Shown in pieces: positions 4,921 through 40,676 of a DNA stretch of 64,000 nt. The notes below the pieces were generated by a model. That model did no database searches and was not told the origin of the DNA. It worked only from the letters and a program-made list of their open reading frames with translations. The stretch comes from Lactarius indigo. Taxonomy: Eukaryota; Basidiomycota; Agaricomycetes; Russulales; Russulaceae. Where the stretch lies: assembly GCA_025766275.1 (NCBI GenBank), contig JAFKAC010000017.1, forward strand, positions 930,001 through 994,000. Reading direction: 5' to 3'. The position numbers and the translations under genes were made by a program. The stretch's first letter is position 1; the number at the start of each line of letters is the position of its first letter.

Positions 4921-4931
4921 AGACTAGACTT
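4921..4931 (-). promoter_or_regulatory. Self-complementary primer binding site, copy 1
   Basis: Coding strand reads AAGTCTAGTCT, two nt inside the LTR edge. It is the exact complement of AGACTAGACTT at 5154-5164 within the adjacent LTR. There is no TGG tRNA 3'-end complement at the LTR boundary. The arrangement matches self-priming in Tf1-type elements. Confidence 0.7.
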
Positions 4932-4933
4932 AA

Positions 4934-5492
4934 TGTAACGCCACTACAGGGGCGTTGAGTGCGACCTGCACTAAGTCAGTCAAACGATTGGTAGTCAAAG
5001 CTCAAAGGCTCGACTTCAGTAGTGGTGATGCACAAGAGTCACAAGGACGCGCGTCACTTGGACTGTAGAGGAGGGCTAAGACACGAAGGTCTAGCTAAGA
5101 CGAGAGTCGGGGTTCTGCGAGACTACGCGTAGACGAGTGTAGTATTACACAAGAAGTCTAGTCTACCGTACAAGCTAGGTGGTACTAGGCTTAAATACGT
5201 TGGTACGAGTGAGGGCGTAAGGTCATCCCTCATCGGAGAACAAAGGCGAAACATAATGGGAACAAAGGACGTCTGTATCGAGAACAAAGGGGAGGATCAC
5301 GCGGGTCTACGCGTGATTGAGAAGTGGACGGAAACTAACACATGTCGAGCTTTATCGAAAGATAACAATGATAAGCAGAGTGCGTGATAGGAACCGGGTA
5401 AACATATTGTCCGCGTAGTCATACAGGGCTTGTAACGTGGAGGTAAAGGAGTTAATGGAAAAAGAAAGGAACGAGTCTGGGAAATCGTAACA
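4934..5492 (-). repeat. LTR (5') of chromovirus copy 1
   Basis: 559 bp; plus strand begins TGTAACGCC and ends ATCGTAACA (TG..CA ends). It is clearly homologous to the 568-bp LTRs of copy 2 with scattered substitutions and small indels. A TTAAATA box on the plus strand (5191-5197, reading TATTTAA on the coding strand) lies 27-33 nt upstream of the predicted start at 5164. Satellite begins at 5493. Confidence 0.9.
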
Positions 5493-6789
5493 CTGACCCT
5501 CCAACACTCTGACTGTCTGACACTCTGACTGTCTGACACTCTGACACTCTGACTCTCTGACACTCTGATGCTCTGACTCTCCGACTTTCTGACACTCCGA
5601 CTCTCTGACTGTCTGACACTCTGACTGTCTGACTGTCTGACTCTCCAACACTCTGACACTCTGACTGTCTGACTGTCTGACTCTCCAACACTCTGACGCT
5701 CTGACTCTCCAACTCTCTGACTGTCTGACTGTCTGACTCTCCGACTCTCTGACTCTCTGACACTCTGACTCTACAACTGTCTGACTGTCTGACTGTCTGA
5801 CTCTCCAACACTCTGACTCTCCAACACTCTGACTGTCTGACTGTCTGACTCTCCAACACTCTGACACTCTGACTCTCTGACTCTCTGACTCTGACTCTCT
5901 GACTCTCAAACTGTCTGACTCTCCGACTCTCTGACTCTCCAACTGTCTGACTCTCCAACTGTCTGACACTCTGACACTCTGACACTCTGACACTCTGACT
6001 CTCCAACTCTCTGACTCTCCAACTCTCTGACTCTATGACTCTCTGACTCTCTGACTCTCTGACACTCTAACTCTCCAACTCTCTGACTCTCTGACTCTCT
6101 GACTCTCCAACACTCTGACTCTCCAACACTCTGACTGTCTGACTGTCTGACTCTCCGACACTCTGACGCTCTGACTCTCCGACACTCTGATGCTCTGACT
6201 CTCCGACTTTCTGACACTCTGACACTCTGACACTCTGACACTCTGACACTCTGACTCTCTGATTGTCTGATTGTCTAACACTCCAACACTCTGACTGTCT
6301 GACTGTCTGACTCTCCAACACTCTGACGCTCCAACTCTCCGACTCTCTGACTCTCTGACTCTCTGACTCTCCAACACTCTGACGCTCCAACTCTCCGACT
6401 CTCTGACTCTCTGACTCTCTGACTCTCCGACACTCTGACTCTCCAACACTCTGACTGTCTGACTGTCTGACTCTCCGACACTCTGATGCTCTGACTCTCC
6501 AACTTTCTGACACTCCGACTCTCTGACTCTCTGACTCTCTGACTCTCTGACTCTCTGATTGTCTGATTGTCTGACACTCCAACACTCTGACTGTCTCACT
6601 GTCTGACTCTCCAACACTCTAATACTCTGACTGTCTGACTGTCTGACTCTCCAACACTCTGACGCTCTGACTCTCCGACTCTCTGACTCTCTGACTCTCC
6701 AACTCTCTAACTCTCCAACACTCTGATTGTCTAACTCTCTGACTCTCGGACACTCTGACGCTCTGACTCTCCAATTCTCTGATTCTCCG
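5493..6789. repeat. 8-bp-unit satellite array, segment 1
   Basis: Tandem octamers of the form CTGACTCT with variants (CTGACACT, CTGACTGT, CCGACTCT, CCAACACT, CTGACGCT). Because 8 is not a multiple of 3, all three minus-strand frames read cyclic versions of one octapeptide, giving long spurious ORFs. The plus strand has TGA in every frame. The segment lies between the LTR of copy 1 and the target duplication of copy 2. Confidence 0.95.
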
Positions 6790-7357
6790 TGTAACGCCAC
6801 TACAGGGGCGTTGAGTACGACCTGTACTAAGTCAGTCTGCTGTCCGGTAGTCAAAGCTCAAAGGCTCGACTTCAGTATAGATGGTGCACAAGAGTCACAA
6901 GGACGCACGTCACTTGGACTGTAGAGGAAGGCTAAGACGCGAAGGCCTAGCGAAGACGAGGATCGGGGAACGAGGAGACTTTGCGAAGACGAGTGTAGTA
7001 TTACACAAAAAGTCTAGTCTACCGTACAAGCTAGGTATAACTAGAGTTAAATAGAAATCGTACTGTATGGCCATTGCAAACAGATGGCGCCATCGCCAAG
7101 TCGAGAAAGAAAGGGACGAACATAAAGGGGACAAAGTAAGGACATTCTGAGAACAAAGGAGAATCACGCGGGGCCGCGCGTGAGAGAGAACAAGTCGGAA
7201 ACTGGCACATGTCAAGCTTTATCAAAAGAGAGCGTCGATAAGCAAGGCGCGTGATAGAAATCGGGTAATCGTAACGTCCGCGTAATCGTACAGGGTTCGT
7301 ATAGTGTGGGAAGGAAGTAGTGATAAGGAAAGAAACGAGTCCAAGAAAATCGTAACA
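6790..7357 (-). repeat. 3' LTR of chromovirus copy 2
   Basis: 568 bp; plus strand starts TGTAACGCC and ends ATCGTAACA. It carries the same internal motifs as the 5' copy, including AAGTCTAGTCT at 7010-7020. Target duplication CTCCG is at 6785-6789. Confidence 0.95.
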
Positions 7358-7370
7358 TTACCCCCCGTCT
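7358..7370 (-). promoter_or_regulatory. Polypurine tract of copy 2
   Basis: The coding strand reads AGACGGGGGGTAA immediately before the TGTTACG start of the 3' LTR. Its position and purine content fit the plus-strand primer of an LTR retrotransposon. Confidence 0.7.
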
Positions 7371-7391: not shown

Positions 7392-8840
7392 TCAGGACTC
7401 CGGATCGATGAGATCGTAGATGTCGGCATCGAGGTCATTCTCTGGCCACGGAGAAATGTCGAGTCGGCAGTAGTGCGTTTTGAGGAAGAGAAAGGGGCCA
7501 CGTTTGCCACACTTGCGACACATTTCATACTGTGGGCATCGAATCTCGTCATGGTTGGCATCAGTGCGGAAGCACCGCCCGCACCATCTCCCTTGAGTGT
7601 GGGTCGCGATCGTTGGTGGTTCAGGGACGGTGAAGGAGGTGGTGGCCTCTGTAGCCACTGCTTGCCGTATACGTTCATCTGCCTGATAGGTCGTGATCAC
7701 TTCTTCGACCATACCTGCGCGGCGGAATATACACCGATGGGATTGGTGTTCCTGACTTTGGCAGTGCCGACAGGCAGGTCGTGGTCTGGTGGGGCAGTCG
7801 CGTACGATGTGGTGGGGGCTATTGCAGTGATAGCAACGTCGGCGGTGGGGTTTGTCTGCGAGACGGGGGAACTCCAATGGACCTCCACGTCGTGGGGAAA
7901 ATGGGATGGCGTAACGGGAGTGGCGGAGTGGGGCTGGTAGGGCCGTCATACGCGCATATTCGTTGCCGATGATAGCTAGTGCTCCTGCGTACTGAAGGCG
8001 CCTTTTGGTGCTGGCTAACATCAAGTCAACCGTGAGTCGCTCCGCTCGCAGTTTTCGTGCGTCCTCCTCCAGCTTCTCGCACTTCTCGTCGAGTTCTTTG
8101 AGCGCCGAGAGTCCTGTCCTCAGCCTAGTGATCTCGGCCGTGAGACGAGGTGAGTTGAGCTCTATAAGTGTTTCGTCCAGAGCGCAGGCGCGGATGTCAT
8201 GGGGGTCAAAGAACTGCAGCTGTTCCGCTGTAAAGGGCGGTGCCGAGACGTTCGGCCTAAGTGACGAGAGGTAGACTTCCTCTCCGTAGTGGGGTTGTCC
8301 CATACCCATCGTCCCCACTACCTCAGTGAATCCCTTGCGATAGTAGATGTACTTCGCTGGGTTAGATCCACCGTCTGGTAGCGGGATCTGTAATGGGTAG
8401 TACTTGGGGGTGTCAGGAGTGTTTGGAAAGAATGGGGCGCCGGGGTCGTCTGTATCGTTAGGAGGGGAGTCGGGTCGGTCGTAGTCGATGGGGGTATGGA
8501 CGCGAACTGGGGTGAATGGTTCTAAAGGTGGGGGTGGTGTGGATGCTGGGGAGGATGGTGGTGATTGAGGTCGTGGTTCAGGTGGGGGCGTCGACTGTTG
8601 CTGAGGGGGTGGAGTCGGAGAGTACTGCCCTTCTTCTGGTGTTGATGGGGTAAGTTCCCCGGGTTCTCGTTCGATGGGAATGGGGGCGATGATGGTAACA
8701 TGCTGGGGGGACGGTGGTGGTGACAGACGGGGGATATCGGTGAGGTTGATGGTAACAATCCCTCGTTCGAGGGCGGCTTCGAGTTGGGGGTTGCTGAGGA
8801 TGTTGATGAGGGTGGTGTCGGATACTGGGGTGTCGGTCAT
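7392..8840 (-). CDS. Chromovirus ORF3: proline-rich, coiled-coil, multi-zinc-knuckle protein
   Basis: ORF after pol, inside the element, in the position occupied by env in retroviruses. The ATG at 8840 (MTDTPVSD) is 39 nt after the pol stop and gives 482 aa; the frame is open further upstream to 8975, overlapping pol. Visible parts in order: acidic/proline-rich N-terminal third (about residues 45-150), a charged probable coiled coil (LTAEITRLRTGLSALKEL onward), then a Cys/His-rich C-terminal third with CCHC-like knuckles (CYHCNSPHHIVRDC; CRHCQSQEHQSHRC) and two further Cys clusters (CGRC, CRKC). There is no signal peptide or membrane segment, so it is not an envelope protein. Nucleic-acid binding is likely and the role is unknown. 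It is about as intact as gag and pol in this copy. Confidence 0.8.
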   Translation of the reverse strand: MTDTPVSDTTLINILSNPQLEAALERGIVTINLTDIPRLSPPPSPQHVTIIAPIPIEREPGELTPSTPEEGQYSPTPPPQQQSTPPPEPRPQSPPSSPASTPPPPLEPFTPVRVHTPIDYDRPDSPPNDTDDPGAPFFPNTPDTPKYYPLQIPLPDGGSNPAKYIYYRKGFTEVVGTMGMGQPHYGEEVYLSSLRPNVSAPPFTAEQLQFFDPHDIRACALDETLIELNSPRLTAEITRLRTGLSALKELDEKCEKLEEDARKLRAERLTVDLMLASTKRRLQYAGALAIIGNEYARMTALPAPLRHSRYAIPFSPRRGGPLEFPRLADKPHRRRCYHCNSPHHIVRDCPTRPRPACRHCQSQEHQSHRCIFRRAGMVEEVITTYQADERIRQAVATEATTSFTVPEPPTIATHTQGRWCGRCFRTDANHDEIRCPQYEMCRKCGKRGPFLFLKTHYCRLDISPWPENDLDADIYDLIDPES

Positions 8841-8878
8841 TGTTGGGCTGAGGGGTACGGGGCTACGAAAGGGGGTCT

Positions 8879-11800
8879 TTATATCGTTCGTCCAGCCCCC
8901 TTGGCGGTCGGGTATCGTTGGTAGAAGTCTTTGATAACATCTGTAGCGTGGGTCATGTTCGTTGCGGGTTCCCATGTGTTATCGCTTGGTGGGAATCCTT
9001 TCCACTTTACTAGGTAGTGGAGTTTGCGCCCTCTTCCTCGTTCCTGGGCGTCTTCAATCTGCTCCACTTCATACTCCTCTTCTCCATTGATAAGGTCCGG
9101 CGGGGGTCGGGTATAGTTTGCGCCGTGCATCTCCGTTTCCTTATATGGCGTTAGAAGGTTCGCATGGAATACTGGGTGTATTTTCCATGATGCCGGAAGT
9201 TCCAGTTCGTACGAAACATCTGATAGAACCCTGACAATGTTAAAGGGTCCGTACCGCTTCGGGGCTAATTTGCTTGTGGGGTAGAAGGTGCGAAGATTGG
9301 TCCCTTCTAGCCATACCTGGTCCCCTTGCTGATAAGGTGTGAACCCTGTTTTTCCTCGTTGGGCCATGAGGTGTTGCGCGTGTTTGATACTATCTTGTGC
9401 GTGTTGTCGGAGTATCTGCAACTCTTCCAATCTTTGATTCACCGCGGGACTGTGAGATGGTTTTGGGGTCCACATAGTTCGTGGTTCCCACCCCATGATG
9501 AGAGAAAAGGGGGAGTGCCTGGTAGTGGCATTTCTCCAGGAATTGTGAGCGAATTGCGCCATGGGTAGAAGTTCCGCCCAGTTATCCTGTTGCACGTTAC
9601 ACCAATGTCGCAGGTATTGTTCTAACCATTGGTTTGTTCGTTCTGATTGACCGTCCGTTTGCGGGTGATACGCTGATGATACGTTTTGCTGTATCCCCAG
9701 CGTTTTGCACAGTTGTCGCATGAACATGGATGTGAATCTTGGATCTCGGTCGGATATGATCCTTCGGGGTAGGCCGTAATGGGGGTAGACATGTCGGAGA
9801 TAGAGTTTTGCCACGCCTTCCGACGTTATGGTTTCGTTACACGGTATGAATATTGCTGCTTTCGAGCAGTCATGGTCTGTGACGGTGAGGATCGAGTCGA
9901 ACCCTTTTGATATCGGGAGTTTGACTATGAAATCCATGGCTACCACTTCGAACGGTTCGGCTGATGGTTCGGTGGTAATGGGGAATAAGTGGGGCTTCTG
10001 TCGGTGATGATTGATTTTGTTGCTTTGGCATGTTGCGCACCCCTTAACGTAGGCTTCCACGTCTTTGCGCATGTTGGGCCACCAGAAGTCGCGTCGTAGT
10101 AGCTCTAGAGTGTTTGCGATTCCTGGGTGTCCTGCGCTTGGGGTATCGTGGAAAAAGGTAATCACCCCCCGTTTAAGTTCGTTGTTTCCCACAACAACAA
10201 GAGCATCGCCCTTCCACCACAACCCATTGTGTTTCTTTAGGTTGTGGGGTTCGATCCACGGGAGGAGTGTCGCTTCGTCCATATTTTGTGCAATTTGAGT
10301 CCATATATCCATGTCGTGCATGGACGTTTGGGTGACTTTGAGAAATACGTCGTCCGGGAGTACAGTAACGTGATCATTGTCACTGGTGCCGTCATCATAG
10401 TCTGGTCTTCTTGATAGGGAGTCTGCTTGTGTGTTCTTGGTACCAGGGATATGTTTGAGTATAAAGTTATACTCCGATAGTTCTTGGAACTCCCGCGCTA
10501 CTCGTCGACTAATTTTCCTGGGTTCTTTCCAGTATTGCAGGTTGGCGTGGTCTGTATGGATTGTTATTAAATGGGGGGATCCCACGAGGTACGTTCGCCA
10601 AGTGCGTAGCGCCTTGACGATTGCTAATAGCTCCCTGTCGTAAATGTCGTAGTTGCGTTCGGCTTCTGATAGGGACTCGGAATAGAATGCGACCGGATGC
10701 ATTCTATTGTCTTCTCCCTTCTGGTTTAAGACCGCCCCTAGAGCATAACTTGAGGCGTCGACTTCGATTTCGAAGGGTTGGTCTAGCTTCGGGAATAGTA
10801 AAACCGGTTCCGAACTGATTCGTTCTTTGATAGTGTCGAAGGCTTTTTGTCTGGCTTCCGTCCATTCCCAGGGGATGTCTTTCTTCGTAAGGTCGTGGAG
10901 GGGCCTCGCAATTGTGGAGAATCCTCGTATAAATCGTCGGTAGAAGTTGCAGAATCCTAAGAAGGCTCGTACTTCTTTGAGTGATGTCGGCGCCTTCCAT
11001 TCTCGGACTCCCTGTACTTTGATTGGGTCCATTCGCAGTTGTCCGTGCCCGATGATTAGCCCCAGGTACTCCACTTCATAGACTTCAAATACGCATTTCT
11101 CTGGTTTGATGTATAGGTCGTGTTTGTCGCAGAGGTCAAGGACTTGGTGTAACACCATTCTGTGGTGGGTACGGTTGTCCGCAGTCGCGATTAGGATATC
11201 GTCCATGTAGACGATCACTTCTCCTGTTAACACCAACTCCCTGAAGATAGTGTCCATCATGGTTTGGAAGGTGCTTGGGGAGTTAGTGAGGCCAAAAAAC
11301 ATGACTCGTGGTTCGAATAACCCCTGATTTGTTTTGAACGCCGCCTTCCATTCGTCCCCTTGTTTGATCCGAATGTTGTTGTATCCCCATCGAATATCGA
11401 GTTTCGAATAAAGTCTTGCTTCTCGGATTTTGTCGATAAGTTCGGGGATTAGGGGGAGTGGATAGTGATTCTTTATGGTTAGTTCGTTGAGGCGGCGGTA
11501 GTCCTGTACCGGGCGTAGTTTCCCGTCCTTCTTTTTGATAAAAAAGAAGGGGGATGCGTAAGGAGACTTGGATGGTTGGATGTACTTCTTTTCCAAGTGC
11601 TCAGTTACGAATTCCGCTAGCTTTTCGTTTTCCGGGATTGTGAGTGGGTATACTTTGCAATCCATTGTTTCAGGGGCAGTTGGGACTAGATCAATGGCGT
11701 GGTCCCATGGGCGTGAAGGGGGAAAGCGCTGAGACGCTTCTTCGCTGAAAACTTTCTGATGCCTCCGATATTCTTCCGGAACCATCTCTTCGAAGGTTTT

Positions 11801-12412
11801 CTGAGGTCTTTTGGCCGCTTCTTGCTGCGCCAGTTCCGATGCTGTCGTCGTCTTTTGTAGCCGGATCGAGGGTTCGTCCTCTCCTTGTAGTTGTTCCCAG
11901 GCTGATTCGTCCAGTTGATACGTCTCCAATGCCTTAATAGTTGCTTCAAGAGGCATGGCTTCGTCGGACAGATGCAGACTGGTGATGACCACTGGTTGGA
12001 ACTCTTCATCGAGTGTGGCGTCTCGCCAATGGAACTTGGGTTCGAAAGCCGTAAACCAGGGGTATCCTAGTATAACTTCGTCGTTTCCTAGATCCGTAAT
12101 AAGGAATCGAAGGTTTTGGATCTTCCCTCCGGTCTTAACAGTGAGGTCGGTGAAGGATGTGATTTCTCCTCCTTGATTGTGGGTTCCATCTACGTTCCAT
12201 ATCTTGATGGAACGTTCGGTAGGTAGCCAGGCTATTTTGAGTCGCTTCAAGAGGTTTGCGCTGATAAAGTTGTCTGTTGCGCCTGAATCTACCAAAACAT
12301 TTCGTTCGGCCGTCGCGTGAGCAGATTTGAAAAGTACTGGAATTCGCATGGATCGGAATCTGCTATTGTACACGCTAAGTTTTAATGCTCTAGCCCAGGC
12401 CGCCGGGTTCAA
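8879..12412 (-). CDS. pol: Chromovirus copy 2 Pol polyprotein
   Basis: 1177 residues, uninterrupted. Order: aspartic protease (DSGATDNF near residue 42), reverse transcriptase (YMDD near 402), RNase H (EIEVDASSYALGAVL; TDHANLQYW), integrase HHCC zinc domain (GHPGIANT with CATCQ), catalytic core with D (AMDF), D (SDRDPRF) and E (HPQTDGQSERTNQWLEQ near 915-930), then a C-terminal chromodomain (about 1112-1167, YLVKWKGFPPSDNTWEP). The chromodomain places it among chromoviruses, whose integrases are known to be guided to particular chromatin. The frame begins at a TTG overlapping the gag stop (TTGA). The first in-frame ATG is about 21 codons in, so expression needs a -1 shift or reinitiation. Confidence 0.95.
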   Translation of the reverse strand: MNPAAWARALKLSVYNSRFRSMRIPVLFKSAHATAERNVLVDSGATDNFISANLLKRLKIAWLPTERSIKIWNVDGTHNQGGEITSFTDLTVKTGGKIQNLRFLITDLGNDEVILGYPWFTAFEPKFHWRDATLDEEFQPVVITSLHLSDEAMPLEATIKALETYQLDESAWEQLQGEDEPSIRLQKTTTASELAQQEAAKRPQKTFEEMVPEEYRRHQKVFSEEASQRFPPSRPWDHAIDLVPTAPETMDCKVYPLTIPENEKLAEFVTEHLEKKYIQPSKSPYASPFFFIKKKDGKLRPVQDYRRLNELTIKNHYPLPLIPELIDKIREARLYSKLDIRWGYNNIRIKQGDEWKAAFKTNQGLFEPRVMFFGLTNSPSTFQTMMDTIFRELVLTGEVIVYMDDILIATADNRTHHRMVLHQVLDLCDKHDLYIKPEKCVFEVYEVEYLGLIIGHGQLRMDPIKVQGVREWKAPTSLKEVRAFLGFCNFYRRFIRGFSTIARPLHDLTKKDIPWEWTEARQKAFDTIKERISSEPVLLFPKLDQPFEIEVDASSYALGAVLNQKGEDNRMHPVAFYSESLSEAERNYDIYDRELLAIVKALRTWRTYLVGSPHLITIHTDHANLQYWKEPRKISRRVAREFQELSEYNFILKHIPGTKNTQADSLSRRPDYDDGTSDNDHVTVLPDDVFLKVTQTSMHDMDIWTQIAQNMDEATLLPWIEPHNLKKHNGLWWKGDALVVVGNNELKRGVITFFHDTPSAGHPGIANTLELLRRDFWWPNMRKDVEAYVKGCATCQSNKINHHRQKPHLFPITTEPSAEPFEVVAMDFIVKLPISKGFDSILTVTDHDCSKAAIFIPCNETITSEGVAKLYLRHVYPHYGLPRRIISDRDPRFTSMFMRQLCKTLGIQQNVSSAYHPQTDGQSERTNQWLEQYLRHWCNVQQDNWAELLPMAQFAHNSWRNATTRHSPFSLIMGWEPRTMWTPKPSHSPAVNQRLEELQILRQHAQDSIKHAQHLMAQRGKTGFTPYQQGDQVWLEGTNLRTFYPTSKLAPKRYGPFNIVRVLSDVSYELELPASWKIHPVFHANLLTPYKETEMHGANYTRPPPDLINGEEEYEVEQIEDAQERGRGRKLHYLVKWKGFPPSDNTWEPATNMTHATDVIKDFYQRYPTAKGAGRTI

Positions 12413-14073
12413 GCGTTCAGAAAATCCTTCTTTTGTCCGAAGAGTTTATCCACCATTAGCTCTCGTACTTCGGGGGTTTGAGCGAATAGGGCAGCTACTT
12501 GGGCGTCGGCTTGTTCCTCGTTGGAAAGGGGGCGTGATGCGGTCATTGAGATAGTGGCGGTAGTTGGAATGGGGTCGCTCGTTCCTGCTGTTTTGGCGGT
12601 AGTGGTGGTCTTTTGAGGGCAGAACTTGGAAATATGTCCTTGCCCTCGGCATCGGAAGCATCTTCCTTCTTTTTGGAGTAGCTTCTTTTCGTCCTCCGTC
12701 ATGGCTGCTCTGGCGCGAGTTCGGCTGACATCCATTGCATTTGGGTCCTTGGTTTTATTGAGGGCGTTCAGCCACTGGTCGCGGGAGGCTCCTCCTTTCT
12801 TGTCCGTTCTTCCTTTAGTGAGCCTGTCCTTGAGGAGGAGATATTCCGCCTGCTGAAGCGTGACCGCCGTTTTCCAATCGTCCCAGTCTACAGGGTGATG
12901 GAACTTGATTGCATTTATGACTAGCGCATTTGGGAGGCCTTTCTGGAAGATTTCTAGGGTAGTGGCCTCGTTCTTGTTGTACCCTGCCTTGTTGGCCAAG
13001 TTAGAGAACTTGGCTATGTAGGTGTCGATGTCTTCTTTGTCCATTCGTAAATTTTGAATGGCGTGGCGGGCTTTTTGTTGTTGGGTAGTGTCGGTGTATG
13101 CCTGGATGAATCTTGTTTCGATAGTGTTCCATAAGTTTTCGGTGTTCATGGTTACTCCTCCCGCCAGTTGGTCGGCTAGCCACTGGATCTGTTCTTCGAC
13201 CCAGTCGTCTACTAATGGTCCTCGGATGTACGAGAGGAGGGTCATTGCACGTGAATAAGGAAGAGTCAGCTGTTGGACATTCGGGTTCATTCCTCGGTAG
13301 AGTGCGAAGGCATTTAGGAACGCTCTGCTAGTTTCTCGGTCCCCTGTGAATTCTGGTGGGGGGTTACCTCCGAGTCGTCCGTTTGGTAGGGGGGGTCCTC
13401 CAGCAGCGGGGCCTGCTGCTGCTCCGCCGCCTCCACCTCCAGGCGCGCCGCCTCCGCCTCCAGGCGCACCGCCTCCACCTCCAGGCGCACCGCCTCCACC
13501 TCCAGGCGCACCGCCTCCATGATGGCTTCCTGCGCCTCCCGCAGTGCCTCCTCCGCTTGTCGACATACTTCCTCCCACAAGATGTCCTCCACTATTTGTA
13601 GGATTCGTTGTCGAGGACCCTGCGGTTGGCTGCGAGGAGGTGAGGGTGGTGGAAAGTTGGGTGGTGGACATATTGGCATATGATGCGAAGTCCACAGGTC
13701 GTTGGATGGTAGGCGTGAGTGTTGGGTTGTCTAGATCAGGTTCGGAAGATGGTTCTTCGATATCGGAATCGGCCTCGATGGCGCTGATTTGTCCTTTTCC
13801 TGGTCCTAGGCCTAGGTGTGCAGGGACGGGTTTGTAGGAATACCAGGAGTGCTTTGAGTCGGAATAGGCGACGTAGGCCCAGATGTGTTGGTCTTCAATG
13901 TATTCGATTGGTTCGTATGTGAGTTTGTCGGGGTCGTAGACGTAGTACCCTTCGTCGTGTGGGGTGTTCCTCCAGAGGGCAGTTCCTTTGATGGAAGGTC
14001 TTAGGTCGTCGTGAGGATGCCGCTCCAGATACTCTTTGACGAACTGTGTTCGGCTTCGGCTGGTGAGAGCCAC
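12409..14073 (-). CDS. gag: Chromovirus copy 2 Gag polyprotein
   Basis: 554 aa. N-terminal region, glycine/proline repeat (four APGGGGG units at about 13429-13512), Gag capsid domain (from PPEFTGDRETSRAF), Gly/Ser/Thr-rich linkers and a CCHC zinc knuckle (CFRCRGQGHISKFC). The ATG is 18 nt inside the LTR edge, so the whole leader is essentially the primer binding site. It overlaps the pol frame by 4 nt at its stop codon. It differs from copy 1 by scattered substitutions and two fewer glycine repeat units. Confidence 0.93.
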   Translation of the reverse strand: MALTSRSRTQFVKEYLERHPHDDLRPSIKGTALWRNTPHDEGYYVYDPDKLTYEPIEYIEDQHIWAYVAYSDSKHSWYSYKPVPAHLGLGPGKGQISAIEADSDIEEPSSEPDLDNPTLTPTIQRPVDFASYANMSTTQLSTTLTSSQPTAGSSTTNPTNSGGHLVGGSMSTSGGGTAGGAGSHHGGGAPGGGGGAPGGGGGAPGGGGGAPGGGGGGAAAGPAAGGPPLPNGRLGGNPPPEFTGDRETSRAFLNAFALYRGMNPNVQQLTLPYSRAMTLLSYIRGPLVDDWVEEQIQWLADQLAGGVTMNTENLWNTIETRFIQAYTDTTQQQKARHAIQNLRMDKEDIDTYIAKFSNLANKAGYNKNEATTLEIFQKGLPNALVINAIKFHHPVDWDDWKTAVTLQQAEYLLLKDRLTKGRTDKKGGASRDQWLNALNKTKDPNAMDVSRTRARAAMTEDEKKLLQKEGRCFRCRGQGHISKFCPQKTTTTAKTAGTSDPIPTTATISMTASRPLSNEEQADAQVAALFAQTPEVRELMVDKLFGQKKDFLNA

Positions 14074-14078
14074 TGTGG

Positions 14079-14089
14079 AGACTAGACTT
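14079..14089 (-). promoter_or_regulatory. Self-complementary primer binding site, copy 2
   Basis: The coding strand reads AAGTCTAGTCT, exactly complementary over 11 nt to AGACTAGACTT at 14312-14322 in the 5' LTR. It is separated from the LTR by 2 nt, as in copy 1. No complement to a tRNA CCA end is present at the boundary. Confidence 0.72.
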
Positions 14090-14091
14090 AA

Positions 14092-14659
14092 TGTAACGCC
14101 ACTACAGGGGCGTTGAGTACGACCTGTACTAAGTCAGTCTGCTGTCCGGTAGTCAAAGCTCAAAGGCTCGACTTCAGTATAGATGGTGCACAAGAGTCAC
14201 AAGGACGCACGTCACTTGGACTGTAGAGGAAGGCTAAGACGCGAAGGCCTAGCGAAGACGAGGATCGGGGAACGAGGAGACTTTGCGAAGACGAGTGTAG
14301 TATTACACAAAAAGTCTAGTCTACCGTACAAGCTAGGTATAACTAGAGTTAAATAGAAATCGTACTGTATGGCCATTGCAAACAGATGGCGCCATCGCCA
14401 AGTCGAGAAAGAAAGGGACGAACATAAAGGGGACAAAGTAAGGACATTCTGAGAACAAAGGAGAATCACGCGGGGCCGCGCGTGAGAGAGAACAAGTCGG
14501 AAACTGGCACATGTCAAGCTTTATCAAAAGAGAGCGTCGATAAGCAAGGCGCGTGATAGAAATCGGGTAATCGTAACGTCCGCGTAATCGTACAGGGTTC
14601 GTATAGTGTGGGAAGGAAGTAGTGATAAGGAAAGAAACGAGTCCAAGAAAATCGTAACA
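14092..14659 (-). repeat. 5' LTR of chromovirus copy 2
   Basis: 568 bp, by eye identical to 6790-7357. If priming is by the transcript 5' end, U3 is 14323-14659 and R starts at 14322. Confidence 0.95.
14322..14355 (-). promoter_or_regulatory. Predicted retrotransposon core promoter and start site
   Basis: A coding-strand TATTTAA box (14349-14355) lies 27-33 nt upstream of 14322, the 5' end of the 11 nt complementary to the primer binding site. Copy 1 has the box (5191-5197) at exactly the same spacing from 5164. Confidence 0.6.
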
Positions 14660-14712
14660 CTCCGACTCTCTGACTCTCTGACTCTCTGACTCTCTGACTC
14701 TCTGACTGTTTG
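14660..14712. repeat. 8-bp-unit satellite, segment 2
   Basis: A short stretch of the same octamer array between copy 2 and the next LTR-like insertion. It starts with the CTCCG target duplication. Confidence 0.9.
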
Positions 14713-15853: not shown

Positions 15854-16640
15854 TGTTACGTTCCTACAAATGTATTGTCCGACTTGGACCGATAACGGGT
15901 GTTGGCACGTGACTACTACTCGTGGAACGGGCTGAACTGCTGAAGCGTCCCCTTAGCAGTCAAGCAAGGTCACCTCCTGATGAGATAATCAGGGAATAAG
16001 AGAAGAGTTGAACAGCTGTCAACCAAAAGAGAGATGGGAGGCAAGCGACAAGTCACAAAGGAGGGGAAAGCCTGAAGTCCTATTGAACAGTAGGAGTGGT
16101 ACAAGAACTCAAGCTGGGGAATGCTCCATCCCAGCGTACTACCTATATACTAGTACACAGTAAAGTTCGCAGTCAGATCCAAACACAGAAACCCTAGTAT
16201 CGTACTGAGTCATACCGAGTCATAGATAAGTACAACCAATGGCATAAGGCCCTCGGTATCGTATCAGTCAGCACAAACGTATCAGCCAATAAGAACACAC
16301 ACAGTAATCGGAAGATAGGCGCGTAGGCCTGTAGAGTCTGTACAAAGGAACCCAATAACCTCTAAGCTTGATAAGGCAAGCGGACCGTAACACTGGTTCG
16401 GCGTGATGTTTGTATTACGCAAACATCACACTGAAACATTGTCACGTGACCACCAACCGTCCACACCACGTATACGCAGCTCAGGCATACTCTTCTCGAT
16501 GTTGCAGCTGCGTAAGCAGCCCGTCTTCTTCGTCATCTTCTTCAGGAGAGTCGGCATCTGTCTTGCCAGACTCTTGGTAATCCCACAGAGGTCCAACACG
16601 TGATGCTGGTAAGTCACGTGGTCGAGGCGCGTTCGTTACA
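15854..16640 (+). mobile_element. Solo-LTR-like insertion B in the satellite
   Basis: 787 bp with ends TGTTACGTTCC...TTCGTTACA and flanks AACTG/GACTG (4 of 5). The undisturbed array contains CCAACTGTCTGAC, so the flanks fit a target duplication. A CTATATACTAG box near 16142 suggests plus orientation. An internal CCGTAACA ends at 16392, followed by TGGTTCGGCG, which could be a tRNA primer site. The alternative is therefore a 539-bp LTR (15854-16392) plus 248 bp of internal remnant. No gag-like ORF is seen in that remnant. Confidence 0.55.
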
Positions 16641-17900
16641 GACTGTCTGACTGTCTGACTGTCTGACTGTCTGACTGTCTGACACTCTGACACTCTGACT
16701 GTCTGACTCTCCAACTGTCTGACTCTCTGACTCTCTGACTCTCTGACTCTCTGACTCTCTAACTCTACGACTCTCTGACTGTCTGACACTCCAACTCTCC
16801 GACACTCTGACACTCTGACTGTCTGACTGTCTGACTGTCTGACTCTCTGACTCTCTGACACTCTGACTCTCTGACACTCCGACTCTCTGACTCTCTGATT
16901 GTCTGACTGTCTGACTGTCTGACACTCTGACACTCTGACACTCTGACACTCTGACTCTCCAACACTCTGACGCTCTGACTCTCCAACTCTCTGACTCTCT
17001 GACTCTCCAACTCTCTGACTGTCTGACTGTCTGACTGTCTGACACTCTGACACTCTGACTGTCTGACTGTCTGACTGTCTGACTGTCTGACTGTCTGACT
17101 GTCTGACACTCTGACTGTCTGACTGTCTGACTCTCCAACACTCTGACGCTCTGACTCTCCGACTCTCCAACTCTCCGACTCTCTGACTCTCCGACTCTCT
17201 GACTCTCCGACTCTCTGACTCTCCGACTCTCTGACTCTCCGACTCTCTGACTCTCCGACTCTCTGACTCTCCGACTCTCTGACTCTCCGACTCTCTGACT
17301 CTCCGACTCTCTGACTCTCCGACTCTCTGACTCTCCGACTCTCTGACTCTCCGACTCTCTGACTCTCCGACTCTCTGACTCTCCGACTCTCTGACTCTCC
17401 GACTCTCTGACTCTCCGACTCTCTGACTCTCCGACTCTCTGACTCTCCGACTCTCTGACTGTCTGACTGTCTGACTCTCCGACTCTCTGACTCTCCGACT
17501 CTCTAACTGTCTGACTGTCTGACACTCTGACACTCTGACTCTCCGACTGTCTGACTGTCTGACTGTCTGATACTCTGACACTCTGACACTCTGACTGTCT
17601 GACTCTACGACTCTCTGACTGTCTGACACTCTGACACTCTGACTGTCTAACTGTCTGACTCTCCGACACTCTGACTGTCTGACTCTCCAACACTCTGACG
17701 CTCTGACTCTCTGACTCTCCGACTCTCCAACACTCTGACTGTCTGACTGTCTGACTGTCTGACACTCCAACACTCTGACTCTCCGACCCTCTGACTCTCC
17801 GACACTCTGACTCTCCGACACTCTGACTCTCCGATACTCTGACAATCTGACTTTCCAACTCTCTGACAATCTGACACTCCAACTCTCTGACATTGTGAGT
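16641..17900. repeat. 8-bp-unit satellite, segment 4, with homogenised 16-bp units
   Basis: Octamers as in segment 1. From about 17178 to 17460 the array is nearly perfect 16-bp dimers (CTGACTCTCCGACTCT), about 17 copies. The satellite ends in degenerate units near 17900. Confidence 0.95.
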
Positions 17901-18420
17901 CTCCAATTCTGACACTTATTGAATATATTATCTATAAATAGTTTCCCTAAATAATATATTATGTGAGTTTCAGGTAACCTGGCTTACTGATTTTGTGATA
18001 ACTTTTAAATTTTTACATGGAGTCTTGTGTAGCAGAAATTGTTAAGTTATTTTTCAATGAAAAAACATTAAATCTTTTCTGAATGTGGCCACAGAATGGA
18101 CTGTGAAAAAATGCGTGACAGGTGTGACAGGTATGGACTTTATGTCTTTTCAGGGATTTTCTGTTTTTGAGAAATTGTGGAAAGACTTTAAATTCATGCC
18201 ACAGCTTTTCTTGAGGACAATTGTGACATAAGCTATATGTTTTTTGCATATGTAATTGTTAAGTTTTTTCACAGTTTTTCTCATCTGATAATCCCTGAAT
18301 GGACTTAAAGTCCATTTACCATAATTTTCCGAGTACAGATTTTATAAAATCTTTAAGTATTAGTCATCACTTTTTTACAATCTTTTCGTGTAAAGACAGA
18401 ATCATGCTGTCAGTGACGGC
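17901..18420. other. AT-rich non-coding flank of the satellite
   Basis: Base composition changes sharply to AT-rich (TATTATCTATAAATAG and similar), with no ORF of interest and no recognised element. Confidence 0.6.
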
Positions 18421-21594: not shown

Positions 21595-24500
21595 ATGTCT
21601 CAGAGTTCCCCCGCAGCTACATCCAATTTCCACTCCATCTTCGTTGCTGCCCTGAAAGCATATGAGAAAAAGACGAAGAACGACCTTCTCAAACATCCCC
21701 TCGCGGCACAGCTACAATCCTGCAACTCTTCCGCCGACATTCTTGCCCTTCTCCGCGACAAAGTTGAAGAGTACGATCAGTCTAAGAGTCGCGATGAGAG
21801 ATTATCAAGTTGGCTGAATCCGACTATCAACGTCCTCTATGCCTTCTCCGCGACCCTGGGCGAAGGTGTTGGACTAGCAAGTCTCGACTGATCGATATCT
21901 CTTCTATTCGGCCCTAATCATTTTCCTAGATTTTCTCACCCGCCAAAGTAATCTCGGCAGGCGTCGGGGTCTTACTCTTGGTAAGTGTCGTCCTTGGTCC
22001 CTGCGTAGAAAAATATTCAACATCGGTGTCGGTCAGGCCGCCAAGGACGTTGACGCGAGCCGAGAAGCCCTTGTCGATATCTTCGAGCGTATCGAATACT
22101 TCTTCAAACGCCTTGAGTCTTACGCAGAAGTCCCACCAACTGATGCGATGACTGACATCATTGTGAAGATAATAGTGGAAGTTTTGAACATATTCGCGAT
22201 TGCGACGAAGGAGATAAAGCAGGGTCGAGCCAGTGTGTTTCTCCCTGGAAATACGTGAATGTAGGCTAATCCAAGGCTAATTTATGTTCAGAAAGATATC
22301 TCAAGAAGCTCGTTGGAAGGAAGGACGTGGAAGACGCACTAAAGAGATTAGACAAGTTGACCCAAGAGGAAGCTCGCATGGCGGCTGCGCAGATCCTGAG
22401 GCTCACCCACAGCGTCGAACATACAATCAAGGGTGTGGACAGCAAGATGGATGCCGTCTTGAGCGGTATGTCGAGCGCATTCGCTACTCATGGACCTATC
22501 ATGATTGCGCTTATGTTGGCTAGACGGAAAGGATGCGAAAGTGGTCCTACAGCAAACTTCGGACGGCATAGATGACGTCAAATGTTAGTGATCAAACCCG
22601 TTCGCTACTGGTGCTGGTCTAACCTTCTAACAGGGAACCAATTGAGAGAGAGCCTTAGAAGATGGGTTACCCCTCCAGATCCATCAACGAATCACAACAT
22701 CGCATGTGACATTCACCATGGGGGAACGGCCGAGTGGTTCTTTCAAGGTAGTATCTTTGCGGAATGGAAGTCCGCTGGCTCTCTCTTGTGGGTCTACGGA
22801 AAACGTATGCTCCTCCAGTCTTCCGTAATCAATTCCTGATTACCATCTACTTTCTTAGCCGGCTCTGGCAAGAGCATCCTTTGGTTCGTTATCACGCAAC
22901 GCCTTCTGTGTGACTCAATGAACTTACATTATCCTCTAGCTCTACAGTCATTCAAGACGTCTTGACTCTACGGGAGGCAGGATTGGCTTCTATGGCGTAC
23001 TTTTATTTTGACTTCAGGGACCTCGATAAGCAACATCGTCGCAACCTCCTCCCGTCCCTCCTCATCCAGCTCTCTGCTCAGTCACGCTCTTGTTGCGACA
23101 TCCTCTCCCGCCTCTATTCTGCATACGACAATGGCGCACAGAAGCCCAGCGATAGTGTAATGACCCAATGTCTCAAGGATATGCTCATGATCCCCAATCA
23201 AGGCCCCGTTTACATTATTTTGGATGCGCTCGACGAGTGTCCAAACTCGTCCGGAATCCCATCACCTCGTGAACAAGTCCTTCGCCTTGTCAAGGAGCTT
23301 ATCGAACTTCGCTTACCACATCTCCATATATGTGTCACGAGCCGTCCCGAATTTGATATTCGAGCCACTCTTGAACCTTTGGCGCTTCACTGTGTGTCCC
23401 TTCATGATCAAAGTGGACAGAAGAAAGACATCGTCGACTACGTGAATGCCGTGGTTTACTCTGACTCCGAGACGATGATGAAGAGGTGGCGAGATGATGA
23501 TAAGAAGATGGTTGTCGAGACCCTGTCAGAGAAGGCGGACGGAATGTAAGCGCGTCATCCTAACTTCATGATGGCGGCTCATGTGTCGAACCAGGTTTCG
23601 ATGGGTGTTTTGTCAACTAGATGCGCTGCGACATTGTCTCCCATCAAGTGTGCGGCATACGCTAGACGAACTTCCGGAATCGCTAGACGAGACATATGAG
23701 CGGATCGTAATGGACATCAAGAGGGGAAACCAAGCGCATGCTTACCGTATGTTGCAATGCCTGACGGCGGCAATCCGACCACTTTCTGTCGAAGAGCTCG
23801 CGGATCTACTCGCTTTTGACTTCGATGGGGCGAAGGGAGGAATTCCGAGATTGAACGCGGACTGGCGCTGGCAAGACCATGAACAGGCGGTACTTTCAAT
23901 ATGCTCAAGTCTAATCACTATCGTCGGTACCGATGATACCAGGCTTGTCCAGTTTTCGCATTTTTCGGTGAAAGAGTTCTTGATGTCGGATCGCCTCGCA
24001 ATGTCGACGAATGACATCTCCCAGTACCACATTGTACTCGAAGACGCCCACACGGTTCTCGCCCGGGCTTGTCTCGGCGTCCTGCTCCGGGATCCTGTTG
24101 ATCAAGACGCCGTAGATGACGTTTCACTAGCCCTATATGCCGCTCGCCACTGGGTGCGTCATGCGCGGGTCGAGAATGTGTCCCCACGCATCCGTGACGG
24201 GATGCAACGCCTCTTTGACCCAAACAAGCCGTACTTTTCGGCGTGGGTCCGGTTGCATGACGTCGATATGGGATTCGTCCCTGACGATCTCGAGAACAAG
24301 AGGCAACCTCAAGCGGCGCCATTATGCTATGCTGCGTTTTGTGGATTCAATGAGATGGTCACAATCCTTACTCTCGAAAATCCACAGTACGCAAGTGCTC
24401 TCGGCTGTGGTAGTGGGGCGGCAATACACGCGGCATCGCTCCAAGGCCACGTGCAAGTTGTACGGTCACTTCTTCAGTGCGGTGTGGATGTAGATATTCG

Positions 24501-24762
24501 GGGCGTATGGAACTGGACACCACTGCATTTTGCGTCGTGGGGAGGATATGTGGACGTTGTGCAGTTTCTACTCGACCACGGCGCGGATGCTAATTTACAG
24601 GATAGGTACAGTCGCACACCGCTAGCTCTTGCAAGAATCCATGCGATCGCGGACGTTGTTCGGGTCTTACTTCTCCATCATTCGGATGCCAATCGCCAGG
24701 AGACTGAAGACCGGACCTCATTGGACAACGCAGGTCCTGCCAACAGCGATCTTCCCAGGTAG
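21595..24762 (+). CDS. NACHT-ankyrin NLR (STAND) with Goodbye-like N terminus
   Basis: Nine exons: 21595-21876, 21930-21980, 22037-22232, 22292-22465, 22524-22583, 22634-22804, 22859-22883, 22940-23545, 23595-24762, giving 910 aa in one frame. Residues 1-210 match the fungal STAND Goodbye-type domain (YEKKTKNDLLKHPLAAQLQS). The NACHT NTPase has Walker A GKPGSGKS (about 311-318, spread over two splice junctions) and Walker B VYIILDALDEC (about 409-419). Ankyrin repeats start near 765 (APLCYAAFCGFNEMV; TPLHFASWGGYVDVVQFLL). The first intron uses a GC donor (GCAAGT). Such proteins act as intracellular sensors in fungal non-self recognition or programmed cell death. The frame stops at TAG 24760 although ankyrin-like sequence continues in frame, so the C terminus is probably truncated. 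Confidence 0.88.
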
Positions 24763-37097: not shown

Positions 37098-40000
37098 TTA
37101 GAACCGGACGCTACGTGCTCTCATACCCACTAAAACCTCACTGTCTTTCATCCAGTTGGGTGGTAATTCCCGTTCCCGGCTGAGGGCTTCCTTCCATGTG
37201 CTGTCCACTGACTGCACCATGGCACCACATCTTTTTATCTTGGTCGCGGTTATTTTGTCATTCGTGAGTCTCTCGTTAATTGCCTGTATCCATCGGTTCT
37301 TGATTTCTTGCTCTGAGTGGGTTTTTAATTGGATTGACCTTTTGCATCTTAGGACCCATATCAGATACGCAGACTCAGAGATTAGGATATGAAGCAGTTG
37401 GTTCGGGCCAGAGAGATTAGGTCTGTTTTGTCTTTCCTGGTCCTGTCGGATTTGATTTTCCGGTGGAGCTATAGCAAGGGAGCCACACCCTAATATCGTT
37501 CCGTAGTCCATCTGGGGCCAGCTGTCTTGGGAGTGTGGCCAGGTTACCCGTGCCATTTCCCATATGAGTTTTCTTGGTGTGGCGCGGCAGTCAGTTAGTA
37601 TGTGTTCCATTGTCTCCGTCTCGTGGCATTCAGCGCACCACTTCCTGTACCCGTTTTCCGGTATGTTCTCCCAGAAGTCGCCCAACCTGAAGATTCCGTG
37701 CATAGTTTTGAATAGGTATTGTTGTATTTTTGGTCTGATTGCCTTCCTTCTTATGTTCCTCCAGATTGTTCCGGTTGTCTCCGGTGCCTTGTTGAAGCGT
37801 GCTATTGCTTCTTCCACCCGGTTAAGGTTCCTTATGGTGGTGGGGCGCGGGTGGGGGGGGCAGAGGTTGCGTATGCCTCTGTAGGCGGTGGACTGCGATA
37901 GCGATGCTAGTTTCGCCCCTTGGAGATCGAAGTCTGCTGGGACATTGAGGGGTAGGTCGTCCGGGGTGTCTTTTTCTGCTCCTATCTTTGCTAACTTGTC
38001 GCTCTCTTCATTTCCTAGGATGCCGTCATGTCCCTTGACCCATTGGAAGGACGTCGTGGCAGTCCGCTTCTTTAGGAGGTATGCTGCCCTCTTGAATAGC
38101 TCTGCGTTGCTGATTCCGATCCATCCAGCGTCCTCCCATTTGCCGAGGTTGGTTGTAAGTCCGTCTATAACATACTTTGAGTCCGTTTTTATTAGAATCG
38201 GCCAGAAGCTTGGGATTTTCGCGATTGCCGCAGATACTGCTGCAATTTCGCCGACCTGGTTCGATTGTTTGGGGCCTGGGACCCTTATTGCTTTGTTTCG
38301 CGGGTCCTCCCGATCGATCCATACACCACTCCCACATTTCGCGTTTGCTTTGCCATTATTGAGGCATGCGCCGTCCGTGTAGATCGTGACTTTTTGGTGG
38401 CGCAGGTTTAGGCCTACCGCGTAGGGTCTGCGCGCCGGTATCGGGACGACTTTCTCCGGGTTGGTAAAGATTCTAAAGCACTCGGTGAGGTCATTTTTGC
38501 ATGTGATTGACGGGTCGAAGAGTATTTCTTCGTTCTTTTCCCTAGCTCTTACGTTCTGCCTCTTCCGGCGCCGGGTGAGGGAGAGGTTGTCGTGCGGGTC
38601 GCCCGGGTTAAGGGGGTTTAGCTTGGGGATGATGTTGTGAATGCGGGTGAGTGCTTCTGCCGCGCATTTGTGTGGATTTTGGCAGCCGTTAACTCTGTCC
38701 AGGATGCAGTCTTCACAGCCGCAGCGTGGTTCGGGCACGTGGGGAAGTGCGGCGGTGCGGGGGCGGAGTCTCGCGGAGGCCTTGATTAGGTCTGTCATGT
38801 TCTTGATCTTGTGGTTCATCATCAGGCACTTTGATTGACGGTTATTAAGGGATTTCGGTTTGGACTTAAGGTGGTACCATGCGGGGAGGCTCGCACGTAG
38901 GGATGGTGATAGGCGGATTGCCGCCAGACAGGTTCCATATTTCTTCGCGACCTTCAGCATTCTCGCCGTGTCATGGCCTAGCATGGCTGCCCTTCGGCCC
39001 CTGGTTGGGGGGGGCCAATTCTGGATGTAGCAATTCACGAGAGCAAGGGGGGAGAGTCCTGGCGGCGCCGCTGCGCTTATTGTTAGGTCGGTGACTGTGG
39101 CCCAGGTGGGGCGGGAGTTAGAGAAGTTTAGGTATGACTTTAGCCATCCAATTTCTATGGCTTCGTTCCTGGCTCTGATGTCGAGCAGGTCTAGTCCTCC
39201 TTCTTCGAGGGGGCTGTGCAGGGCTTCCATGGCAATACGCGATTGTGCGTCCTCTCCCCATATGAAGTTTCTTAACATTTTAGTGAATGCCGTTTCGATG
39301 GGCTTTGGCATGCCTTGGGCCTTCGTTAGGAATTGAGTGTGTCCGCCGATGATGGCTTGTGCTATTAGTCTTTTTCCGTATAACGTCGGGCGCGTTTCCT
39401 CCCAATTGTCGATTTGTCTCTTGGTTTTGTCTAATATTGGTTCCCAGGGTACCGCCACGTCTGCGTGGTTGCCCAGCCAGGCTCCCAAGATGCGTACCAC
39501 ATCTCCGTCTTCGGCTATCCTTATGTTCCCTCGGAGGGGGGTAGTTTCCTCTCTGTTGAGTTTTCTGGTCATCACGATGTTCCGTCTGTGGTCCTCGGTC
39601 CCGATAGGTATGATTTCAGTTTTTTCAATGTTGAACTTGGCCCCGGCTACCTTACACCATTTTTCTAGGATTTGTTCAGCCACATCAAACTTATCCCTCG
39701 CGCTCAGGAAGAGGTTTGTGTCGTCCGCGAAGAGAGTGACAATTAACTTGTTTGTTAGTCCAGGGATTTGGATGCCCTCCAGTTGGTCCGTGTTCCGGAG
39801 TGTGCATGCGAGGGGTTCAATTGCAAGGTCGAAAAGGGCACAAGACAGGGGGTCCCCTTGCCTGACCCCCCTCGTTATTCTAAAGGGTGAGCTGAAGACT
39901 CCGTTTATGGCCACTTGCATCTCCGCTTGGTGGTATAGGGATTTGACCGTGCTTATAAATCTTTCCGGTAGGTTAAAGGTTTCCAGTGTTTTCCACAGGT

Positions 40001-40676
40001 AGTCGTGGCGGATTTTGTCATATGCCTTTTCCTGGTCCAGGGCAATGATCGCCCCGTTCTCTTCCATCACCTCCGCGTAGTTGATGATGGCTTTTGCCAG
40101 TCGAATATGGTCGAAGATGGAGCGTTTTGGGACGAATCCCGCTTGGTCCGGGTGTACCAGGGTGTGTATGGATTCCATCAGTTGGAGGGCCATCGCCTTT
40201 GTTAGAAGCTTATAGTCCGTGTTGAGCAGCGTTATTGGGCGGTAGTTGCCTATTTCAGATGGATCTTTTTTCTTAAAGATCAGGCACATCCATCCCAGAG
40301 AGAACCCCGATTTTTCGTCGACACCATACTCCTGGATGTCTTGGAAGACAATTGTGAGTACATTAATTATATCAAAGCCCCGGGCTCCTGCTTGTGTTGC
40401 GTTGTCATTTAGATCTTTCATGGTCTTCCATAATTCGTAAGTGCACCCGTCCATTCCGGGGGCTGAGCCATTTTTTGATAGGTGAAGTGCTTGTTCGACT
40501 AAATTTGGGGTTATTTTCCAGTTTTCGTCCCTTTCCAGGTGGTTGGGGAGCTTTTGGTTTCGAGGGATTTCATGGAGTGTCTGTCCTACTTCCTCTTCGT
40601 ATTCCGTGGCGTTTTGTTGGGGGTCGATACCTTGTTTCTGTAGGTTTTCGTGGTAGTCCCGGGCTAGCTTCGCCAT
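37098..40676 (-). CDS. LINE ORF2, 3' part: reverse transcriptase, RNase H, C-terminal zinc motif
   Basis: 1192 aa. The reverse transcriptase starts near GSAPGMDGCTYELWK and includes GNYRPITLLNTDYK, ALDQEKAYDK and the catalytic FADDTN. RNase H follows (YTDGACLNNG; KTDSKYVID; WVKGHDGILGNEESDKLA). Beyond it is a Cys/His segment (CAECHETETMEHILTDC) typical of the RT zinc-binding tail. The frame is the same as the upstream endonuclease ORF and separated from it only by a TGA, so the two belong to one original ORF2. Translation of this part alone could begin at the ATG right after that TGA. Confidence 0.92.
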   Translation of the reverse strand: MAKLARDYHENLQKQGIDPQQNATEYEEEVGQTLHEIPRNQKLPNHLERDENWKITPNLVEQALHLSKNGSAPGMDGCTYELWKTMKDLNDNATQAGARGFDIINVLTIVFQDIQEYGVDEKSGFSLGWMCLIFKKKDPSEIGNYRPITLLNTDYKLLTKAMALQLMESIHTLVHPDQAGFVPKRSIFDHIRLAKAIINYAEVMEENGAIIALDQEKAYDKIRHDYLWKTLETFNLPERFISTVKSLYHQAEMQVAINGVFSSPFRITRGVRQGDPLSCALFDLAIEPLACTLRNTDQLEGIQIPGLTNKLIVTLFADDTNLFLSARDKFDVAEQILEKWCKVAGAKFNIEKTEIIPIGTEDHRRNIVMTRKLNREETTPLRGNIRIAEDGDVVRILGAWLGNHADVAVPWEPILDKTKRQIDNWEETRPTLYGKRLIAQAIIGGHTQFLTKAQGMPKPIETAFTKMLRNFIWGEDAQSRIAMEALHSPLEEGGLDLLDIRARNEAIEIGWLKSYLNFSNSRPTWATVTDLTISAAAPPGLSPLALVNCYIQNWPPPTRGRRAAMLGHDTARMLKVAKKYGTCLAAIRLSPSLRASLPAWYHLKSKPKSLNNRQSKCLMMNHKIKNMTDLIKASARLRPRTAALPHVPEPRCGCEDCILDRVNGCQNPHKCAAEALTRIHNIIPKLNPLNPGDPHDNLSLTRRRKRQNVRAREKNEEILFDPSITCKNDLTECFRIFTNPEKVVPIPARRPYAVGLNLRHQKVTIYTDGACLNNGKANAKCGSGVWIDREDPRNKAIRVPGPKQSNQVGEIAAVSAAIAKIPSFWPILIKTDSKYVIDGLTTNLGKWEDAGWIGISNAELFKRAAYLLKKRTATTSFQWVKGHDGILGNEESDKLAKIGAEKDTPDDLPLNVPADFDLQGAKLASLSQSTAYRGIRNLCPPHPRPTTIRNLNRVEEAIARFNKAPETTGTIWRNIRRKAIRPKIQQYLFKTMHGIFRLGDFWENIPENGYRKWCAECHETETMEHILTDCRATPRKLIWEMARVTWPHSQDSWPQMDYGTILGCGSLAIAPPENQIRQDQERQNRPNLSGPNQLLHILISESAYLIWVLRCKRSIQLKTHSEQEIKNRWIQAINERLTNDKITATKIKRCGAMVQSVDSTWKEALSRERELPPNWMKDSEVLVGMRARSVRF

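What the first reader, a model, noticed from the sequence alone, without database searches (positions are those of the whole stretch)
14079..14322. Self-primed chromovirus: an 11-nt primer site complementary to the predicted 5' end of its own transcript
In both copies the coding strand carries AAGTCTAGTCT two nt after the LTR, and its exact complement AGACTAGACTT inside the same LTR (14312-14322; 5154-5164 in copy 1). In each copy a TATTTAA box lies 27-33 nt upstream of that complement, so it should be the very 5' end of the RNA. There is no tRNA-type TGG site. This is the arrangement known from Tf1 of fission yeast, where the first 11 nt of the mRNA prime minus-strand synthesis. Conservation of both halves and of the TATA spacing in two diverged copies argues against chance.
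Basis: partly seen in the sequence, partly recalled or inferred. Interest (0 to 1): 0.78.

Follow-up and report, generated by a model that had tools for sequence, protein, structure and literature searches.

The report
Self-priming retrotransposon of a milkcap-like fungus
This jumping DNA element of a mushroom-forming fungus seems to start copying itself with the first 11 letters of its own RNA instead of a cell tRNA, a trick already known from fission yeast and its relatives; here natural copies that changed one half of the match have changed the other half too.

Summary
AAGTCTAGTCT lies 2 nt after the 5' LTR of a chromovirus (14079-14089, minus strand). Its exact complement begins 33 nt after the start of a TATTTAA box in the same LTR (14312-14322). 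Copy 1 has the same arrangement (4921-4931, 5154-5164). Of 59 usable LTR loci, 23 are 5' LTRs by gag homology (the two window copies included), and 23 of 23 match over 11 of 11 letters. Two carry a changed primer with the matching changed site; a third matched variant sits in an element without a gag match. Genome-wide, 172 places fit a pattern free at those two positions, 0 in the reversed control; 168 are the common pair, and the fourth of the other four is unresolved. No tRNA examined fits (28 distinct, no Met tRNA among them). Self-priming from the RNA 5' end is well supported at sequence level; RNA start and cleavage were not measured. This is the established mechanism of Tf1/sushi chromoviruses, so it is a new member of a known kind. 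The host is probably Lactarius or a near relative.

The parts
14092..14659 (-). 5' LTR of copy 2 (568 nt, TGTTACG...CGTTACA)
   Evidence: identical to the 3' LTR
6790..7357 (-). 3' LTR of copy 2
14079..14089 (-). primer-binding site AAGTCTAGTCT, 2 nt (TT) after the 5' LTR
   Evidence: concordant in 23 of 23 gag-defined 5' LTRs
14312..14322 (-). self-primer AGACTAGACTT, predicted first 11 nt of the RNA
   Evidence: RNA start inferred
7010..7020 (-). same 11-mer in the 3' LTR
14349..14355 (-). TATTTAA box, -33 to -27 from the primer
   Evidence: sequence; TATTTAA at -33 in 59 of 60 LTR loci
4921..4931 (-). PBS of copy 1
5154..5164 (-). self-primer of copy 1
5191..5197 (-). TATTTAA box of copy 1
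   Evidence: sequence
12409..14133 (-). gag open frame (stop to stop) with one CCHC knuckle
8879..12445 (-). pol open frame (stop to stop): protease, RT, RNase H, integrase, SH3_Tf2-1, chromodomain; -1 frame relative to gag
7392..8978 (-). extra open frame after pol with two CCHC knuckles
7358..7366 (-). GGGGGGTAA, likely plus-strand priming tract (inferred from its place)
14660..14664 (-). target site duplication CGGAG, 5' side
6785..6789 (-). target site duplication CGGAG, 3' side

Best explanation
The element is a self-priming chromovirus of the Tf1 type. Transcription starts about 33 nt after the start of the TATTTAA box, so the RNA begins AGACUAGACUU. These 11 nt fold back on the AAGUCUAGUCU site 2 nt after the 5' LTR. 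RNase H of the element cuts after nt 11, and the freed 3' end primes minus-strand DNA through U5 and R. Shown here: the exact pairing, its TATA spacing, its maintenance in many copies, and compensatory changes at two of the 11 positions. Inferred from Tf1: the RNA start, the cut after nt 11 and the use as primer.
For: 23 of 23 gag-defined 5' LTRs have a perfect 11-nt match, among them L077 and L081 with both halves changed; L074, with no gag match, has a third matched variant. On the alignment of 24 leaders (23 distinct) all 11 pairs form in every row; pair 6 is AU 20 / GC 3 and pair 7 GC 21 / AU 2. Sliding the partner by 1-3 columns gives 18-36% paired cells and no double change; of 500 shuffles none reaches the observed number of doubly changed cells or the covariation score, but 37 reach the 2 doubly changed pairs. 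RNAalifold finds the 11-bp helix unprompted. Mean pairing probability of primer with PBS exceeds 0.5 in 23 of 23 distinct leaders (this set was chosen for at most 1 mismatch). 172 places fit the pattern free at two positions, 0 in the reversed control, 168 of them the common pair. In copy 2 the bases on both sides of the 11 do not pair, and the bases after the PBS differ between subfamilies. Tf1 likewise pairs its first 11 bases and is cut between 11 and 12 (passage of PMC7175516).
Against: No transcript or cDNA data. The double changes come from related LTRs (L074 95% and L081 90% identical to the L077 LTR), so they may be as few as two events. The loci examined are the best matches to two LTR queries, not all copies. 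The flanking duplexes of the Tf1 pretzel are only partly supported: LTR-end pairing is possible in 23 of 23 leaders but predicted with mean probability above 0.5 in 8 of 23, and RNAalifold prefers local hairpins there. The whole leader of copy 2 does not fold better than shuffles (z -1.1, 26 of 200 as good). L029 has TT plus an 11-mer with 3 mismatches and no gag behind it: probably flanking DNA, but a decayed element is not excluded. One of 172 genome places was not resolved.
Confidence: 0.87

Rival explanations
1. The 11-nt match is real and selected, but as an RNA or DNA structure with another job (packaging, dimerisation or transcription control), and another RNA primes reverse transcription.
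For: Covariation shows pairing, not priming. The stretch from about -15 to +30 is highly conserved as a whole, not the primer alone: 59 of 311 windows of 11 nt are at least as conserved as the primer window.
Against: The site lies where a PBS must lie, 2 nt after the LTR; no TGG follows the LTR; the match sits at the predicted RNA 5' end, as in Tf1.
Confidence: 0.08
2. A tRNA or tRNA fragment primes, and the LTR match is secondary.
Against: The best tRNA match to the primer has 3 mismatches of 11, and the best tRNA 3' end has 6 mismatches of 11 to the site. A tRNA primer does not explain matching changes in the LTR half.
Confidence: 0.04
3. Chance complementarity inherited by all copies.
For: Most copies examined share the same pair by descent; 37 of 500 shuffles reach the number of doubly changed pairs.
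Against: 36 of 20000 LTR shuffles reach the match even without the TATA condition, and exact matched changes at two positions in three elements would not be expected.
Confidence: 0.01

Closest known systems
Tf1 (Schizosaccharomyces pombe), founding self-primed element
   Same: First 11 RNA bases complementary to the PBS next to the 5' LTR (passage of PMC7175516); chromodomain integrase (section of PMC10085805)
   Different: Tf1 has one ORF and no CCHC in Gag; here gag and pol are separate frames, Gag has CCHC, and there is a third ORF
Other Tf1/sushi chromoviruses of fungi, such as marY1 (Tricholoma matsutake) and Tcn1 (Cryptococcus)
   Same: Self-priming is described as a common feature of the group; Tcn1 was proposed to self-prime; -1 frame pol and CCHC Gag are usual outside fission yeasts
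   Different: Different host; extra 3' ORF whose only hits are Lactarius proteins. marY1 and Tcn1 sequences were not compared here. A clubmoss Tcn1-like element showed neither tRNA nor self-priming sites (passage of PMC2864245)
Tj1 (Schizosaccharomyces japonicus)
   Same: PBS complementary to the 5' end of its mRNA; active element (section of PMC4600332)
   Different: In-frame stop between gag and pol instead of a frame change

Membership tests
Tf1/sushi chromoviruses | chromodomain behind the integrase | tested here: met
   PF00385 at E 1.5e-15 and SH3_Tf2-1 in pol
Tf1/sushi chromoviruses | PBS complementary to the predicted RNA 5' end | tested here: met
   the RNA 5' end itself is inferred
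Tf1/sushi chromoviruses | two further duplexes beside the primer duplex (pretzel) | tested here: inconclusive
   LTR-end arm possible in 23 of 23 distinct leaders, predicted above 0.5 in 8 of 23, replaced by local hairpins; downstream arm 5-9 bp and not uniform
Tf1/sushi chromoviruses | CCHC Gag and pol in the -1 frame, as in members outside fission yeast | tested here: met
   frame position only, frameshifting not shown
Tf1/sushi chromoviruses | RT-IN tree position inside the group | not tested
   no tree was built; named proteins in the 120 listed hits include Lyophyllum shimeji 'tf2' and chromo-domain proteins at 59% and frog proteins at 45-50% identity over RT-RNase H
Tf1/sushi chromoviruses | RNA start at the primer and cut after nt 11 | not testable with these tools
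   needs RNA and cDNA mapping
tRNA-primed chromoviruses | PBS starting with TGG and complementary to a tRNA 3' end | tested here: not met
   LTR is followed by TTAAGTC; 28 distinct tRNAs without a fit, Met tRNA not among them

The most novel reading that the evidence does not exclude
The matching changes are not only selected but copied: when plus-strand DNA is made over the attached self-primer, the new PBS takes the sequence of the RNA 5' end, so one mutation in the LTR half can spread to both halves within one or a few replication rounds. The matched subfamilies here would be natural records of that templated conversion. This is inference; no call tests it.
Probability: 0.35. Interest if true: 0.45.

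Novelty: new member of a known kind. Interest (0 to 1): 0.3.

Why it matters
It extends sequence evidence for self-priming to a large family (168 places with the common pair) in a probable Lactarius genome, and it gives natural compensatory variants, which is stronger than complementarity in one copy. It changes no accepted view: the group is already described as self-priming.

Tried and rejected
A first listing of LTR loci read minus-strand matches on the wrong strand; it was redone. One search recognised 5' LTRs by likeness to the common PBS, and by complementarity, which is circular; therefore used gag homology alone. A repeat search was swamped by an 8-bp satellite. No tree of RT-IN was built. 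The genome-wide count of discordant pairs is incomplete: two count patterns and a variant pattern (from then on) did not complete. Looking by eye at the gag-pol overlap printed I saw no canonical slippery heptamer; not tested further. Literature: a search for Lactarius with self-priming found 0 papers. They cover open PMC papers only. The Lin and Levin papers were not held and are known to me through citations in other papers and recall. Of the papers used I saw passages (PMC6317226, PMC7175516, PMC2864245, PMC5006619) or single sections (PMC4600332 section 3, PMC10085805 section 28), none in full.

Full report
What is there. The window holds two copies of one LTR retrotransposon on the minus strand. 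Copy 2 has both ends: LTRs at 14092-14659 and 6790-7357 are identical over 568 nt, flanked by CGGAG on both sides, with GGGGGGTAA before the 3' LTR. Its pol frame (8879-12445) carries protease, RT, RNase H, integrase, SH3_Tf2-1 and chromodomain matches; its gag frame (12409-14133) a Retrotrans_gag match and one CCHC knuckle. Identical LTRs and long open frames point to a recent insertion (inference). Copy 1 has its 5' LTR from 4934; an LTR 98% like it over the stretch searched lies outside the window at C79:918076.

The 11-mers. AAGTCTAGTCT follows the LTR after TT in both copies, and its exact complement lies in the LTR, with TATTTAA starting 33 nt before it. In the shuffle test 36 of 20000 LTR shuffles contain a complement of any of seven 11-mers that begin 0-6 nt after the LTR; asking for the TATA position as well would lower this.

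Other copies. The genome (G000, 90.3 Mb, 291 contigs) was searched with the LTR ends of copies 2 and 1 (41 and 40 matches listed, with more than 800 candidates each, 30 loci cut from each). Of the 60 loci, primer 11-mers are AGACTAGACTT 53, AGACTGAACTT 4, AGACTGGACTT 3. L071, a partial match, was dropped from later counts, leaving 59. To find 5' LTRs without looking at the PBS, the DNA behind the LTR was compared with gag: 23 loci qualify, L001 and L061 being the window's own copies, and all 23 have a PBS that is the exact complement of their own primer; two of them (L077, L081) carry AGACTGAACTT with AAGTTCAGTCT. L074 carries AGACTGGACTT with AAGTCCAGTCT but has no gag match behind it. L029 has TT and an 11-mer with 3 mismatches and no gag match; I take it as flanking DNA.

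Covariation. On 24 leaders (23 distinct) all 11 pairs form in every row; pairs 6 and 7 show changes on both sides in 3 and 2 rows, and no row is mismatched. Slid controls give 18-36% paired cells and no double change. Of 500 shuffles, 0 reach the doubly changed cells or the covariation score, 37 reach the 2 doubly changed pairs, and all 500 reach the number of pair types. This set had been chosen with at most 1 mismatch, so the percentage paired is partly by construction; the concordance is not. The three variant rows belong to related LTRs (L074 95%, L081 90% identical to L077), so independent events are few. RNAalifold on the same alignment returns the 11-bp helix and a hairpin at the LTR end.

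Genome-wide count. Allowing any base at the two variable positions in both halves, 172 places fit and none fit the reversed control. The common pair accounts for 168. Three of the other four are the matched variants: the L081 and L074 places appear in the list and not in that, and L077 fits the pattern by its sequence. The fourth is unresolved because the service stopped answering. The pattern fixes the other nine positions, so it cannot see changes there.

Other structure. Nucleotides 15-29 of the RNA can pair with the end of the LTR in all 23 distinct leaders, like one arm of the Tf1 pretzel, but this is predicted above 0.5 in only 8 of 23 and competes with local hairpins. The second arm is weak and not uniform. 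Single folds pair primer and PBS in both window copies, with z-scores for the whole leader of -1.1 and -2.4.

tRNA. No TGG follows the LTR. Of 63 tRNA matches listed, 50 loci covering 51 of them were read, giving 28 distinct tRNAs; the best internal match to the primer has 3 mismatches, and the best 3' end 6 mismatches to the site. Met tRNAs are missing from this set.

Comparison with what is known. Self-priming was found in Tf1, where the first 11 bases pair with the PBS and RNase H cuts between 11 and 12 (passage, PMC7175516). It is described as a common feature of the Tf1/sushi group, whose tree in that paper includes marY1 of a mushroom (section, PMC10085805), and was proposed for Tcn1 of Cryptococcus and for most plant Tcn1-clade elements (passages, PMC6317226). 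Not every relative shows it: a clubmoss Tcn1-like element had no recognisable tRNA or self-priming site (passage, PMC2864245). The present element has the group's domains, CCHC Gag and a -1 pol frame; its place in an RT-IN tree was not tested. It works like Tf1 at sequence level and is most likely a member of the group.

Host. ORF3 matches two Lactarius indigo proteins at 87% identity (over 61% and 57% of the query) and one of L. sanguifluus at 37% (over 35%), and nothing else at E up to 0.001 among 7988 scored candidates, so the host is probably Lactarius or close to it (Russulaceae).

Verdict. Observation confirmed, interpretation supported, mechanism known: a new member of a known kind, with compensatory variants as the useful addition.

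Noticed in passing
7392-8978 (-): A third open frame (528 residues stop to stop) after pol, with two CCHC knuckles and further CxxC pairs; Pfam gives only a sub-threshold zinc knuckle, and the protein search found only three proteins, all Lactarius. Function unknown; perhaps an RNA-binding accessory protein.
   Followed up: partly
12409-14133 (-), leader and gag start: In 18 of 24 leaders the first AUG lies at +644 to +648 of the predicted RNA, yet codons upstream differ mostly synonymously: L001/L077 34 synonymous and 5 not of 110, L077/L081 17 and 3, but L001/L079 27 and 20; five of eight pairs asked for gave no result. Gag may begin at a non-AUG codon or after splicing.
   Followed up: partly
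L074 (G000:C112:1412033-1412362): An LTR with a matched variant primer and PBS is followed by DNA without gag similarity: possibly a non-autonomous relative that keeps the self-priming signals.
   Followed up: no
5388 onward: An 8-bp satellite (332 register positions 8 nt apart); copy 2 is inserted in similar sequence. The Pfam matches of ORF 16481-17983 to a phage spike domain may be satellite translation; not checked.
   Followed up: no
37098-42197 (-): LINE-like pair of frames: endonuclease, then RT with RNase H.
   Followed up: no
22914-24762 (+): NACHT-type domain followed by ankyrin repeats.
   Followed up: no
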